Shown: one piece after another, positions 22,831-33,983 of the stretch | How the letters are laid out: each line of letters starts with the position of its first letter | Position numbering within the stretch: the first letter of the stretch is position 1 | From: Candidatus Hydrogenedentota bacterium | GTDB taxonomy: Bacteria; Hydrogenedentota; Hydrogenedentia; Hydrogenedentales; JAJRTN01 | Direction of reading: 5' to 3' | Assembly (NCBI GenBank): GCA_024278275.1 | Contig: JAJRTN010000174.1 | Coordinates: 1 to 56,346, forward strand | Length of the DNA stretch: 56,346 nt | Program-made: the position numbers and the translations under genes | Notes under the pieces: model-generated | Told to the model about the DNA's origin: nothing | The model's input: the letters and a program-made list of their open reading frames with translations, nothing else | Databases searched by the model: none

Positions 22831-23655
22831 CTACGCTTGTGTCAGTCCCTGTTTTTGCTTGGCGGCATCGGCGAGGGACTTTACGAAGGCACCCACCTTG
22901 GAGGCCGTCTCGTCACTGTCGCCCAGATCGGCGATCATGCGGACGATGGCGCTGCCCACCACGACCCCCTCGGTCATGGCGCCCACCTTCCGGGCCTGGT
23001 CGGGCGTGGAAATGCCAAAGCCCACGGCCACCGGTTTGTCGGTGTGGCGTTTCACGCGGGCCACGGCTTCCTGGAGGTCGGCGGACAGGGCCGCCTGCTC
23101 GCCCGTCACGCCCAGGCGGGAGACATAGTAGACGAAACCGGTCGATTGCTTCGCGATCCGTTCAATCCGTTCGTCGGTGCTGGTGGGGGCGAGAAGGAAG
23201 ACCGTGCGCAGGCCGTGGGCATCCAAAGCGGCGCGGTAATCATCGGCTTCTTCCGGGGGCAGGTCCACGCAGAGCACGCCGTCAGCCCCGGCCTCCCGGG
23301 CATCCTTCGCGAAGGCCTCGCAACCGTAGACCAGCACCGGGTTGTAGTAGGTAAAGAGCAAAATGGAAATCTGCGATTTAACGCGGATGCGGGCGATAAG
23401 CGCAAAGATATCACGGAGGTTCACGCCCTGGGCGAGGGCGCGCTGGGCGGCCTCCTGGTTCACCGTGCCGTCGCCGATGGGATCGGAGAAGGGCACGCCA
23501 AACTCGATGATGTCCGCGCCCGCTTCTTCCAAAGCATACACGATTTCCTCGGTCCGTCCGAGGTTGGGATCACCCGCGGTGATGTAGGGGATGAAGGCGG
23601 TTTCGCCCCGTTCCCGGAGTTGGGCGAAACGGATGTCGATACGGTTCTTACTCAT
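22831..23655 (-). CDS. trpA: Tryptophan synthase alpha chain
   Basis: Cleaves indole-3-glycerol phosphate to indole, which is channelled to TrpB. The 274-residue TIM barrel has the catalytic acids in [14 protein letters not shown]51 and D58, corresponding to Glu49 and Asp60 of the Salmonella enzyme. The phosphate-binding GFGISTPDQ segment is also present. Its ATG overlaps the trpB TGA by four bases. The stop is TAG with no family residues beyond it. Confidence 0.96.
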
Positions 23656-24902
23656 GCCTTGGCTCCCCCGCTCCAGTCTTCATCGGGCAAAATAAAACGC
23701 GCGGCCTGTTGTACGTCCTTGTCACCGCGGCCGGACATGTTGACGATAACAATCCGATCCTTGTTCATGGCGGGCACCACCTTCATGGCGTGGGCGATGG
23801 CATGGGCGCTTTCGAGGGCGGGAATGATACCCTCCAATTCGCTGCACCGCTGGAATCCATCCAGGGCTTCGTCATCGCTCACATGGGTATATTCAACGCG
23901 GCCGGAATCATGGAAGTAGGCGTGCTCCGGCCCCACGCTGGCATAGTCCAGCCCGGCGGACACGCTGTGGGTGCTGCCAATCTGGCCGTACTCGTCCTGC
24001 AACACGTAACTGATGGCGCCGTGCAACATGCCGTAGGCGCCGCCGTCGAAGCGCGCCGCGTGTTCTCCGGGTTTGATGGCGGTGCCACCGGCCTCGACGC
24101 CAATCATGCGTACCGACTCATCGCCAATAAACTCATAGAAAAGTCCCACGGCATTGCTGCCGCCGCCCACGCAGGCGATGAGCGTATCGGGCAGCCGCCC
24201 TTCCTTCTCGAAGATCTGCTTCCGCGCTTCCCGGCCAATGACGCTTTGGAAGTCGCGGCAGATCATGGGGAAAGGGTGCGGACCGTGGACAGTGCCCAGC
24301 ACGTAGTGGGTGTCCTCCACATGAGCCACCCAGTCGCGGAGGGCTTCGTTGATGGCATCCTTCAGGGTCTTGCTGCCTGATTCCACGGTGACGACCTCGG
24401 AACCCAGCAGCCGCATGCGGAAGACGTTCAACTTTTGCCGTTCTATGTCCTCCGCACCCATGTAGACCACACACTTGAGGCCCAGCAGCGCGCTCGCCGT
24501 GGCCGTGGCGACGCCGTGCTGGCCCGCGCCGGTTTCGGCGATGATGCGGGTTTTTCCCATGCGCTTGGCCAGCAGGCACTGGCCGAGGGCGTTGTTGATC
24601 TTGTGCGCGCCCGTGTGGGCCAGGTCTTCCCGCTTGAAATAGACCTTCGCCCCGCCGAGGGCTTCCGTGAAACGCGCGGCGAAGTAGAGCGGGGTGGGGC
24701 GGCCCACGTAGTCCTGTCGGTAGGTGTGGAGCGTCTCCTGGAAGGCGGCATCTTCCCGGGCGCTTTCATAGGCGCGCTCCAGCTCGTCCAGGGCGTACAT
24801 GAGCGTCTCGGGGACGAAGCGTCCGCCGAAGGCGCCGTAGCGGCCGCGCGCGTCAGGCCAGGGATGTTTTTGCGTTGTGGATGAAGGCGCGAATTCGGTC
24901 AT
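23652..24902 (-). CDS. trpB: Tryptophan synthase beta chain
   Basis: PLP enzyme joining indole and L-serine to make tryptophan. The 416-residue product has the PLP lysine K101 in [13 protein letters not shown], the substrate loop [13 protein letters not shown] and the phosphate-binding GGGSNAVG. It is the TrpB1 type that pairs with TrpA. Its start overlaps the end of trpF by 50 bases, a long overlap, but [21 protein letters not shown] leads directly into conserved sequence with no later start available. Its stop overlaps the trpA start. Confidence 0.96.
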
Positions 24903-25473
24903 GGTCCTTCTTTCCCGGCGTGCTTTCCACGCCGCTTGAGGTATCCACCGCGAAGGGCCGCACCTCGCGGACGGCCCCCGCCACGTTTTCCGGGGTCAGC
25001 CCGCCCGCCAGCACGATGGGCCTGCCCGTGGCCACGGCCTCGCGGGCCACGGCCCAGTCGCAGGTTTGTCCCGTGCCGCCGTGCTCGCCCTGCACCGAAG
25101 CGTCGAGCACATAGCCCCGGGCCTCGTAATAGAGCATACGCTGCACCTCGAAGTCCGGCCCGACACGAAAGGCCTTAAGGGTGACCTGCGCGGGCGGAAG
25201 ATCCGAGGGGGACTCACTGCCGCAGCACTGGACGCAATCGAAATAAGTCAGGTAATAGGCCAATTGCTGGACGCTTTCATCCACGCACACGGCCACGGTG
25301 GTGATGAACGGCGGCAACTGGGCGATGATTTCAAAAGCGGCCTCGGGCTCGATGTAGCGATTGCGCTTTTTGGCCTCCGGCGCCAGGACAAAGCCCAGCG
25401 CGTCCGCCCCGGCCTCGGAAGCGGCCAGGGCGTCTTCCAGGGAGGTGATCCCGCAAATCTTAACCCTCGTCAT
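24853..25473 (-). CDS. trpF: Phosphoribosylanthranilate isomerase
   Basis: Third-step isomerase of tryptophan synthesis, an Amadori rearrangement. From the ATG at 25473 ([18 protein letters not shown]) the 206 residues match the family. The catalytic cysteine is C7 and the catalytic aspartate lies in [17 protein letters not shown]. The start overlaps the trpC stop by 14 bases and the end overlaps the trpB start by 50, consistent with tight coupling. An upstream in-frame start inside trpC is rejected because its translation is unrelated to the family. Confidence 0.95.
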
Positions 25474-26248
25474 CGTTTTCACCCAGCAGTTCCCGGATCG
25501 TGGCCTGAATGTCGCGGCTGGTGAGGAGGGACTCTCCCACGAGAATGGCGTCCACGCCGCCTTGCTCCAGCTTCCGCACCTGGTCGCGCGTGTAGATGCC
25601 GCTTTCACTGACCAGGGTCAGGCCGCCGGGTACGCGATGCTTAAGACGGAGGGTCGTTTCCACGTCCACGTCGAGCGTATCCAGGTCGCGGTTGTTAATC
25701 CCCACAATATGCGCACCCGCGTCAATGGCGCGCTTGATCTCTTCCTCCGTGTGGGTCTCCACCAGGACCGCCAGGCCCAATTCGGAGGCCAGACCGTGGA
25801 AGGCCTTCAACTCGGCGTCGGAGAGAATCCGCACGATGAGGAGAATGGCGTCCGCCTCCGCCGCGCGGGCCTCGTGGATCTGGTAGGGATCGATGATGAA
25901 CTCCTTGCGGAGACAGGGCTTGTTCAGGTTGCGATGGACAGTGGTCAGGTCCTCCAGGGCACCTTTGAAAAAGTGCTGGTCCGTCAGAATGGAGATGGCG
26001 CGTGCGCCGGCCTGATCGTAGACGGCGGCCAGTTCCACCGCGTTCACTTCCGGCATGATATCACCCTTCGAGGGCTACGCACGCTTTATCTCGGCGATGA
26101 GGCTGATGCCTTCGGCCCGCAGGGCGGCACGAAAATCCCGCGCCGGGGCCACGGAAGCGATCTTCTCTTCCAGCGCGGCCAACGGGACGGCCCCCTTGCG
26201 CTCCGCCACCTCTTTGCGCTTGTACGCAACAATCTCGTCAAGGATCAT
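25460..26248 (-). pseudogene. trpC: Indole-3-glycerol phosphate synthase, interrupted by in-frame TAG
   Basis: Encodes a full 262-codon synthase apart from one TAG at 26075-26077 (codon 58). The N-terminal part MILDEIVAYKRKEVAERK...ISLIAEIKRA contains the family's E53 and K55. The same frame resumes immediately with PSKGDI and runs through FFKGALEDL, CLRKEFIID, GINNRDL and LVSESGI to the normal end. Nearly all family members read KRASPSKG here, so TAG stands exactly at a conserved Ser; TCG to TAG is one base change. No other disruption is seen. The fragments alone should be inactive. If decoded as Ser by suppression, the enzyme would be complete. Confidence 0.9.
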
Positions 26249-26252
26249 ACCG

Positions 26253-27278
26253 CTATTCTTCCGCCTGTTGGGAAAGCCTGACCAGATGGCCCAGGCAGGC
26301 CCGGGCCGCGCCGGTGTCGATGGATTCACGCGCCTTTTCGATGCCCTCGGCCAGGTCCCCGGCGCCCTCGCCCGCCACAATGGCGGGGGCCGCGTTCAAG
26401 AGGGTGATATCCCGCCGGGGGCCGGTTTCGCCTTCCAGGACGGCCTTGAGAATGGCCGCGTTCTCCGCGGGGCCTTCGCCCTCCTTCAGATCCTCGAGAC
26501 GGCAGGTCTTCAACCCGAACTGATCAGGCTAGACCTCGTAGGTCACCACCACGTCGGGCCGCGCTTCCGAGATCATCGACGGCCCGGTCAGGGTAAGCTC
26601 ATCCAGTCCGTCCAGCCCGGCCACCACGAAGGAATGGCGTGTTCCCAGCCCCCGCAGCACCAAGGCCAATTGTTCGGTCAGCTCGGCGTCGAACACGCCC
26701 ATCACCTGGCCGCTCGCCCCGGCCGGATTGGTCAGGGGGCCGAGCACGTTAAAGACCGTGCGCATGGCCAGCTCGCTCCGCACCGGCCCCACGTGTTTCA
26801 TCGCGCCATGAAAAGACCGGGCGAAAAGAAAACCGATTCCCGCCTCGTCGATGCAGCGGGCCACCTGCCCGGGAGAACAATCGATGCGAACCCCCAGGGC
26901 CTCCAGCACATCGGCGCTGCCGCATTTGCTCGACGCGCTGCGGTTGCCATGCTTGGCCACGGCCACGCCGGCCCCGGCCACCACGAAGGCGGCGGTGGTG
27001 GAGATATTGAAGGTGCCCGACCGGTCTCCACCCGTGCCACACGTATCCACCAGCGGCGTGCGCGACGCATGGACCGGCGTTGCCAAGGCACGCATGGTCT
27101 CGGCGAAGCCGGTGATTTCCTCGACCGTCTCGCCCCGCATTCGAAGGGCGGTGAGAAAGGCGGCCACCTGGGCGGGCGTGGCCTCCCCGGACATAAGGAT
27201 TTTCATGGCGGCGCCAGCCTGTTCACGGGTGAGGGTGTCACCCGAAACAAGGTGCGTGATGGTCTCTTGAATGGTCAT
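26253..27278 (-). pseudogene. trpD: Anthranilate phosphoribosyltransferase, interrupted by in-frame TAG
   Basis: Encodes a 341-codon enzyme of normal length except for one TAG at 26529-26531 (codon 250). Before it lie the family motifs DTCGTGGDRSGTFNIST, KHGNRSASSKCGSADVLE and VFNVLGPLTNP. After it the same frame continues PDQFGLKTCRLEDLKEG and GPAENAAILKAVLEG, the conserved C-terminal domain. The residue before PDQFG is usually Ser or Thr in relatives, so TCG to TAG is plausible. The ATG at 27278 follows AGGAT. The final stop is also TAG, five bases before trpC. No trpE or trpG is present in the window. Confidence 0.9.
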
Positions 27279-32205: not shown

Positions 32206-32832
32206 GTGGCGAATCATGCACCCAAATGGACCCGCCAGCCGGACAAGCGGCCGGATCAGATCATGGAAGCGGCCTTGGAAGCCTTTTCCAGGAAAGGTTT
32301 TCGGGGCGCGACCATGGACGAGGTGGCGCGAAGCGCGGGGGTGACCAAAGGCACGATTTACCTCTATTTTTCAAGCAAGGAAGCGGTATTCCTGGCCAGT
32401 GTACGGCGTGAGGTGGATATGCTGCTGACACTGGTGCCGGAAGTCCGCCTTGACGCGGACAGTGGCGTCGAGGGCCTGGCGAAAACCGTGGCGCGCTCGC
32501 TGATCGGCATGCTCATGTCACCCCGTATGACCCGTCTCATCCCATTGGTGGTGGCGGAGGTAAATCACCTGCCGGCACTGAAACAGCTCTATCACGACGA
32601 ATTGCTTCCCAAGGCGAACCTTGAACTAGCGGAGATCCTGCGCGCGGCCATGGGACTGGGTATTCTCCGTGCGCTGGATCCGGTCATCGCGGCGCGGGCG
32701 CTGTTGGGCATGTTTTTCACCTTCGCCTTGACCCAGGAGGTCTTTGGGGCGAAGGAAGTCACCCCGATGGATGAAGAGGCCATCGCGGACACCATTGTGA
32801 GCATCTTTCTCCGGGGCGTGCTCGCGGCATGA
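32206..32832 (+). CDS. TetR/AcrR-family transcriptional regulator
   Basis: Repressor of 208 residues. The N-terminal helix-turn-helix (IMEAALEAFSRKGFRGATMDEVARSAGVTKGTIYLYFSSKEAVF) is a textbook TetR domain. The C-terminal ligand-binding half is divergent, as usual. Start is GTG 32206 after AAGAGG. It is first in a four-gene exporter operon; its stop overlaps the adaptor start (ATGATG). A 20-base palindrome just upstream is the likely binding site. Confidence 0.92.
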   Translation: MANHAPKWTRQPDKRPDQIMEAALEAFSRKGFRGATMDEVARSAGVTKGTIYLYFSSKEAVFLASVRREVDMLLTLVPEVRLDADSGVEGLAKTVARSLIGMLMSPRMTRLIPLVVAEVNHLPALKQLYHDELLPKANLELAEILRAAMGLGILRALDPVIAARALLGMFFTFALTQEVFGAKEVTPMDEEAIADTIVSIFLRGVLAA

Positions 32833-33983
32833 TGGGAGTGCAACCGTTGAAAAAAACGACATACACGCGGCTTGCGACGGCGCTACTGGCGGTATTACTG
32901 CTTGCCGGCTGTCCCGGGACCGATGATGGCATCCTGCGGGTATCGGGACAGATCGAAGGAAACGCGGTGACGGCGGGTACCCGCGTGGGCGGCCGGGTGG
33001 CCGAAGTGCTTGCCGAGGAAGGCCGATGGGTTGAAGCGGGGGCTTTGCTGGTGCGCCTGGAGGACGACGAGGCCCGGGCCATGGTGTCGGCGGCCGAGGC
33101 GGGGATCGCCCGGGCGGAATCGTTGCTGGCAAAGCTCGAAGCGGGCGCGACGGCGGAGCAGAGGGCCCAGGCGGAGGCGGCGGCACGGGCGGCGAAGGAG
33201 CAGTATCTCATGGCCCGGCGGGGTGCGCGGGCCGAGGAAATCGGCGCGGCGGAGGCCCGTGTGGCGGCGGCGCGGGCACAACGTGATTCCGCACAAACCG
33301 AGTTCGACCGGGCCAGGCGATTGCTGCGCGAGGGTGCCATTTCGAGACAGCAGTACGACCGGGCCGAGACCATGCTGCGCACCGCGGAGGCGCAACTGGA
33401 CGGCGCCCGGTAGGCCTTCAGCATGTCGAAGGAAGGCACGCGAAGCGAGCAAATCGCCATGGCAAAGGCGAATTACGAACGGGCCGAGGCGGTGGTGGCG
33501 GAATTACGCGAGGGCGCGCGGCAGGAGGACCTGGCGGCGGCCCGCGCCACTGTCGATGCCGCGAAGGCCGACCGGGACCGGGCGCGGGCGGCGTTGCGCG
33601 AGACACGCATCACGGCGCCCATCAAGGGCCTGGTGGAAGCGTTGGACGTCTCCCCCGGTGATCTCATCAAGCCGGGGCCGGTGGTGCGCCTGGTGGATCC
33701 GGACGATCTGGAATTGACCGTCTACGTGAGCGCCGGATACCTTGGGCAGGTGCGCGTGGGCCAGCAGGTGCGCTTCACCACCGACGCGTTTGGGGAAGAA
33801 ACCTTCGAGGCCACCATCGTCCACATCGCCACGCAGGGCGAATTCACGCCGCGCAACCTGCAAACCGAGGAGGAGCGGATTCAACAGGCCTTTGCCGTGA
33901 AACTCGACCTCGATTCCGCCGGTGGAAAGCTGCGGTCGGGCATGACGGCAACCGTGTCCCTGAAAGCACCGGACACGCCATGA
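32829..33983 (+). pseudogene. HlyD-family adaptor lipoprotein, interrupted by in-frame TAG
   Basis: Periplasmic adaptor linking the ABC transporter to an outer-membrane channel. It is 384 codons long with one TAG at 33411-33413 (codon 195). The N-terminus has a lipobox LAGC, with C28 as the lipidated cysteine. Next come the lipoyl-like half (GTRVGGRVAEVLAEEGRWVEAG) and a long alanine/arginine-rich coiled-coil hairpin. After the TAG the same frame continues AFSMSKEGTRSEQIAMAK through the second hairpin arm, TAPIKGLVEALDVSPGDLI and the beta-barrel to the normal end. The break is at the coiled-coil turn. Loss would leave the ATPase and permease without an adaptor. Confidence 0.85.

What the first reader, a model, noticed from the sequence alone, without database searches (positions are those of the whole stretch)
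26529..26531. Second in-frame TAG in the adjacent trpD
trpD reads VTYEV-(TAG)-PDQFGLKTC. Both sides are conserved and the total of 341 codons is normal. Relatives usually have Ser or Thr before P-(E/D)-x-(F)-G. Two neighbouring genes of one pathway carry the same single lesion and no other damage.
Basis: partly seen in the sequence, partly recalled or inferred. Interest (0 to 1): 0.65.

Follow-up and report, generated by a model that had tools for sequence, protein, structure and literature searches.

The report
Scattered false stops in draft genome
The trpD gene really carries an in-frame TAG in this assembly, but the same draft genome has single in-frame stops of all three kinds scattered through unrelated housekeeping genes, so it is most likely a base error in the assembly or an ordinary point mutation, not a recoded codon.

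Summary
trpD (26253-27278, minus strand) has one in-frame TAG at codon 250 (26529-26531), and neighbouring trpC has one at codon 58 (26075-26077). Both are the only copies in the genome and are otherwise conserved on either side. A pathway-specific or meaningful TAG is not supported. In the 37% of the genome I could read, about 15 further genes of unrelated function have one in-frame stop: priA (TGA), flgK, larE and an M3 peptidase (TAA), a xer-type recombinase, an htrA-like protease and a HlyD-like gene in this window (TAG), and others. The 17 stops are 8 TAG, 8 TAA and 1 TGA. About 210 orthologues of five of these genes in related genomes carry none. All three stops are ordinary terminators here; RF1 and an RF2-type factor are present, no CUA tRNA was found, and ancestral residues differ (Ser in trpC, acidic in flgK). 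Where the ancestral codon can be inferred, a single G:C to T:A change fits. The best reading is consensus base errors in a metagenome assembly; real recent nonsense mutations are the main rival. Reads were not available. Given this background, a pair of stops 454 bases apart is not very surprising (about 4-27% by chance).

The parts
26253..27278 (-). trpD (anthranilate phosphoribosyltransferase), 341 codons, one in-frame TAG
   Evidence: translation; Glycos_transf_3 and Glycos_trans_3N match it; single copy
26529..26531 (-). in-frame TAG, codon 250 of trpD
25460..26248 (-). trpC (indole-3-glycerol phosphate synthase), 262 codons, one in-frame TAG
   Evidence: IGPS E 6.3e-89 over residues 3-254; single copy
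26075..26077 (-). in-frame TAG, codon 58 of trpC, at a Ser invariant in 35 of 35 relatives
24853..25476 (-). trpF, open frame (start codon not determined)
   Evidence: translation, no stop inside; product named from sequence, no family scan run
23652..24902 (-). trpB, open frame
   Evidence: translation, no stop inside; product named from sequence
22831..23655 (-). trpA, open frame
   Evidence: translation, no stop inside; product named from sequence
33411..33413 (+). third in-frame TAG of the window, in a HlyD-like membrane fusion gene (frame about 32829-33980)
   Evidence: coding on both sides; HlyD_3 downstream and biotin/lipoyl-type match upstream in one frame

Best explanation
The TAG in trpD, like the one in trpC, is one of many isolated single-base substitutions that create in-frame stops across this draft genome, regardless of gene function or stop type. 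Most likely they are consensus base errors of the assembly, of the kind produced where few reads cover a site or DNA was oxidised (G read as T), and the living organism has intact trpC and trpD. Shown: genome-wide scatter, all three stop types, scarcity of frameshifts, absence from orthologues in related genomes. Inferred: that the cause is sequencing or assembly, and that reads would show a sense codon.
For: (1) A scan of 1.97 Mb of the genome found 17 in-frame stops that appear to lie inside single proteins, trpC and trpD included: 8 TAG, 8 TAA, 1 TGA. Domain or homologue matches cross the stop for Carbam_trans_N, FlgK_D1, Phage_integrase, He_PIG, Peptidase_M3, URO-D (weak), IGPS, Glycos_transf_3 and LarE. 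(2) For trpC, trpD, priA, flgK and xer, about 210 orthologues in related genomes have none, nor do 80 trpD and 66 trpC genes from other genomes. (3) The lesions hit core genes (priA, trpC, trpD, flgK), which selection would be expected to clear. (4) The stop-type mix fits random substitution in this codon usage (expected TAG 50, TAA 30, TGA 20%; for G:C to T:A alone 37, 43, 20%). (5) Inferable ancestors fit G:C to T:A: trpC TCG to TAG; flgK Glu/Asp column to TAA; priA closest motif Gly (GGA to TGA), with a private Ala to Ser (GCG to TCG) 10 codons upstream. C>A errors are tied to 8-oxoguanine in sequencing libraries (PMC5994075). (6) Substitutions dominate: junctions lacking a start codon gave 13 in-frame stops against 8 mostly unconvincing frameshift candidates. 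(7) With 20-60 such lesions in 5.35 Mb, a pair within 460 bp has a 4-27% chance.
Against: No reads or coverage could be examined. Contigs are fairly long (this one 56 kb) and the genome is 96% complete, which does not suggest very low coverage. The density (17 found in 1.97 Mb) implies a high error rate if nonsense is only about 3-6% of random substitutions. This contig has 3 of the 17 in 56 kb, more than its share. Some of the 17 rest on coding potential and motif reading, not a domain crossing the stop. Only three ancestral codons could be inferred.
Confidence: 0.62

Rival explanations
1. The stops are real, recent nonsense mutations in the sampled population: the strain has lost tryptophan synthesis and some other functions, perhaps with a G:C to T:A mutator background or in a bottlenecked enrichment.
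For: Single substitutions with otherwise intact conserved columns also fit very recent loss. Inferable changes share the G:C to T:A class.
Against: trpF, trpB, trpA and trpE are open. Losses would include priA, flgK and a xer-type recombinase in one genome. Frameshifts, a large share of real pseudogenes, are scarce. Three HhH-GPD glycosylase-family genes (the family of MutY) are present without stops; MutM and MutT were not checked.
Confidence: 0.31
2. UAG (or UAA and UAG) is read as an amino acid in these genes by a suppressor tRNA or a changed code.
For: Conserved protein on both sides of each stop; only 1 of 17 is TGA.
Against: TAG ends 270 and TAA 238 of 1020 long frames. RF1 and a second, RF2-type factor are present. 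41 tRNAs were found and none has a CTA anticodon. One TGA and eight TAA need other readers. Ancestral residues differ: Ser in trpC, acidic in flgK, Gly or Glu in priA. Pyrrolysine genes were not searched.
Confidence: 0.04
3. Programmed readthrough of UAG regulates trpC and trpD in response to tryptophan or translation state.
For: Two genes of one operon-like cluster both carry UAG followed by CC.
Against: No unusual RNA structure downstream (z -0.80 and +0.63). No shared context among the 17 stops. No relative has it. The trpC stop truncates the protein after 57 residues.
Confidence: 0.03

Closest known systems
Consensus base errors in draft metagenome assemblies, including 8-oxoguanine C>A/G>T artefacts
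   Same: Isolated substitutions, any gene, all stop types, few indels, G:C to T:A where inferable
   Different: Not demonstrated with reads here; contig length and completeness are good
Ordinary pseudogenes with one nonsense mutation
   Same: Single in-frame stop in an otherwise normal gene
   Different: Hits core genes; few frameshifts; rest of the trp pathway open; no visible decay
Stop-codon reassignment or amber suppression in bacteria
   Same: In-frame UAG in conserved genes
   Different: UAG and UAA still serve as normal stops; release factors present; no cognate tRNA found; ancestral residues not of one kind

Membership tests
Consensus base errors of a draft assembly | Lesions scattered over unrelated genes and absent from orthologues | tested here: met
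   17 genes; about 210 clean orthologues of five of them
Consensus base errors of a draft assembly | Reads disagree with the consensus at the site | not testable with these tools
   no reads held
Stop-codon reassignment | The codon is no longer a normal terminator | tested here: not met
   TAG ends 270 of 1020 long frames that end in a stop
Stop-codon reassignment | Cognate tRNA with CUA anticodon | tested here: not met
   41 tRNAs, none CTA; the assembly lacks a few tRNAs (Ile, Ala-TGC not seen), so absence is not proof
Stop-codon reassignment | One consistent ancestral residue at the codon | tested here: not met
   Ser in trpC, variable mostly Thr in trpD, acidic in flgK
Pyrrolysine decoding | pylS and pylBCD genes | not tested
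Programmed readthrough | Conserved stop in relatives | tested here: not met
   0 of 53 (trpD) and 0 of 54 (trpC) relatives with a match
Programmed readthrough | Downstream RNA structure or shared context | tested here: not met
Decaying pseudogene | Relaxed constraint or extra lesions | tested here: not met
   0 of 100 (trpC) and 4 of 120 (trpD) near-invariant columns changed, within the range of relatives; the trpD part after the TAG has 2 of 10 invariant columns changed

The most novel reading that the evidence does not exclude
A bacterium that tolerates UAG and UAA inside conserved genes, trpC and trpD among them, through general low-fidelity termination, while still using all three stops.
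Probability: 0.03. Interest if true: 0.8.

Novelty: not a real feature. Interest (0 to 1): 0.12.

Why it matters
Two in-frame TAGs in adjacent genes of one pathway look like recoding when seen alone. The genome-wide count shows how easily scattered substitutions in a draft assembly imitate it, and gives a simple check (other stop types, unrelated genes, ancestral residues) for such claims. It also warns against calling this organism a tryptophan auxotroph from this assembly.

Tried and rejected
A first codon-usage scan ranked the two trp TAGs as the top TAGs and suggested they were unique; with a better model and homology they proved two among many. A TAG-specific code change was rejected (TAG common as terminator, mixed stop types). 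Structure near the TAGs: none. PDB look-ups for the htrA-like and glycosyltransferase ancestors gave nothing usable. Literature searches for in-frame stops in metagenome assemblies found no paper with all terms.

Full report
The window is the whole of contig C145 of a 5.35 Mb, 200-contig genome, 96% complete, with no relative from the same family held. On the minus strand it carries trpD, trpC, trpF, trpB and trpA in that order; trpE lies on another contig and has no stop.

Observation. trpD reads 341 codons with a single TAG at codon 250, window 26529-26531. The Glycos_transf_3 model matches across it. trpC has a single TAG at codon 58, window 26075-26077, and the IGPS model matches across it. 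Each gene is the only copy. In 35 relatives the trpC position is always Ser, mostly TCG; in 39 relatives the trpD position is variable, with Thr commonest.

Constraint. In trpC none of 100 near-invariant columns is changed besides the stop. In trpD 4 of 120 are changed, within the range of relatives (0-13), though two of the ten strictly invariant columns after the TAG are changed (G266E, V292T). There is no sign of long decay. No relative has a stop in either gene, nor do 80 trpD and 66 trpC genes from other genomes.

Is TAG special here? Of 1020 long frames with a stop, 512 end in TGA, 270 in TAG and 238 in TAA. A full prfA and a second, RF2-type factor are present. 41 tRNAs were found, none with CTA, and a lax search added only three weak matches. 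Ile and Ala-TGC tRNAs were not seen, so the tRNA set is slightly incomplete.

Genome-wide background. I read 1.97 Mb of the genome and looked for stops with coding signal on both sides. Many hits are tandem genes, but 17 appear to lie inside one protein, trpC and trpD included: TAG in trpC, trpD, a HlyD-like gene of this window (33411-33413), a URO-D-like protein, a carbamoyltransferase, a xer-type recombinase, an htrA-like protease and a beta-helix-type protein; TAA in flgK, larE, a He_PIG protein, an Ig/beta-helix protein, a glycosyltransferase, a PQQ protein, a GH42 protein and an M3 peptidase; TGA in priA. Domain or homologue matches cross the stop in nine of them; the others rest on flanking domains or motif reading. 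For priA, flgK and xer as for trpC and trpD, no orthologue in related genomes has a stop, about 210 gene copies in all. So this genome, not the trp operon, is the outlier.

Nature of the changes. The stop mix (8 TAG, 8 TAA, 1 TGA) fits random single substitutions in this codon usage, and G:C to T:A in particular. Where an ancestor can be inferred, G:C to T:A fits: Ser TCG to TAG in trpC; an acidic column to TAA in flgK (GAA if Glu); probably Gly GGA to TGA in priA, judged from the closest motif since that column is variable, with a private Ala to Ser, GCG to TCG, ten codons upstream. This is the class tied to guanine oxidation, in cells or during library preparation (PMC5994075). Frameshift candidates without a nearby start were fewer and less convincing than in-frame stops.

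The pair. With 20-60 lesions in the genome, at least one pair within 460 bases arises in 4-27% of random placements. The adjacency of the two trp stops needs no special cause, although three lesions in this 56-kb contig is somewhat more than its share.

Verdict. The TAG is really in the sequence, but it is most likely an assembly base error (0.62) or a real recent point mutation (0.31). Recoding and programmed readthrough are disfavoured by the mixture of stops and of ancestral residues, normal termination at TAG, and lack of shared context or structure. Reads would decide, and none are held.

Noticed in passing
window 33411-33413 (+): In-frame TAG in a HlyD-like membrane fusion protein gene, third single in-frame stop of the window.
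   Followed up: partly
L107 18799-18801 (-), contig C196: In-frame TGA in priA, with a private Ala to Ser change (GCG to TCG) 10 codons upstream; 37 relatives with a match have no stop in priA.
   Followed up: yes
L285 11798-11800 (+), contig C57: In-frame TAA in flgK at a column that is mostly Glu or Asp in relatives.
   Followed up: yes
L143 3969-3971 (+); L071 5969-5971 (+); L119 19556-19558 (+): In-frame stops in larE (TAA), an M3 peptidase (TAA) and a xer-type recombinase (TAG).
   Followed up: partly
genome G000: No tRNA for Ile or Ala-TGC among 41 found, probably because rRNA operons are missing from the assembly.
   Followed up: no
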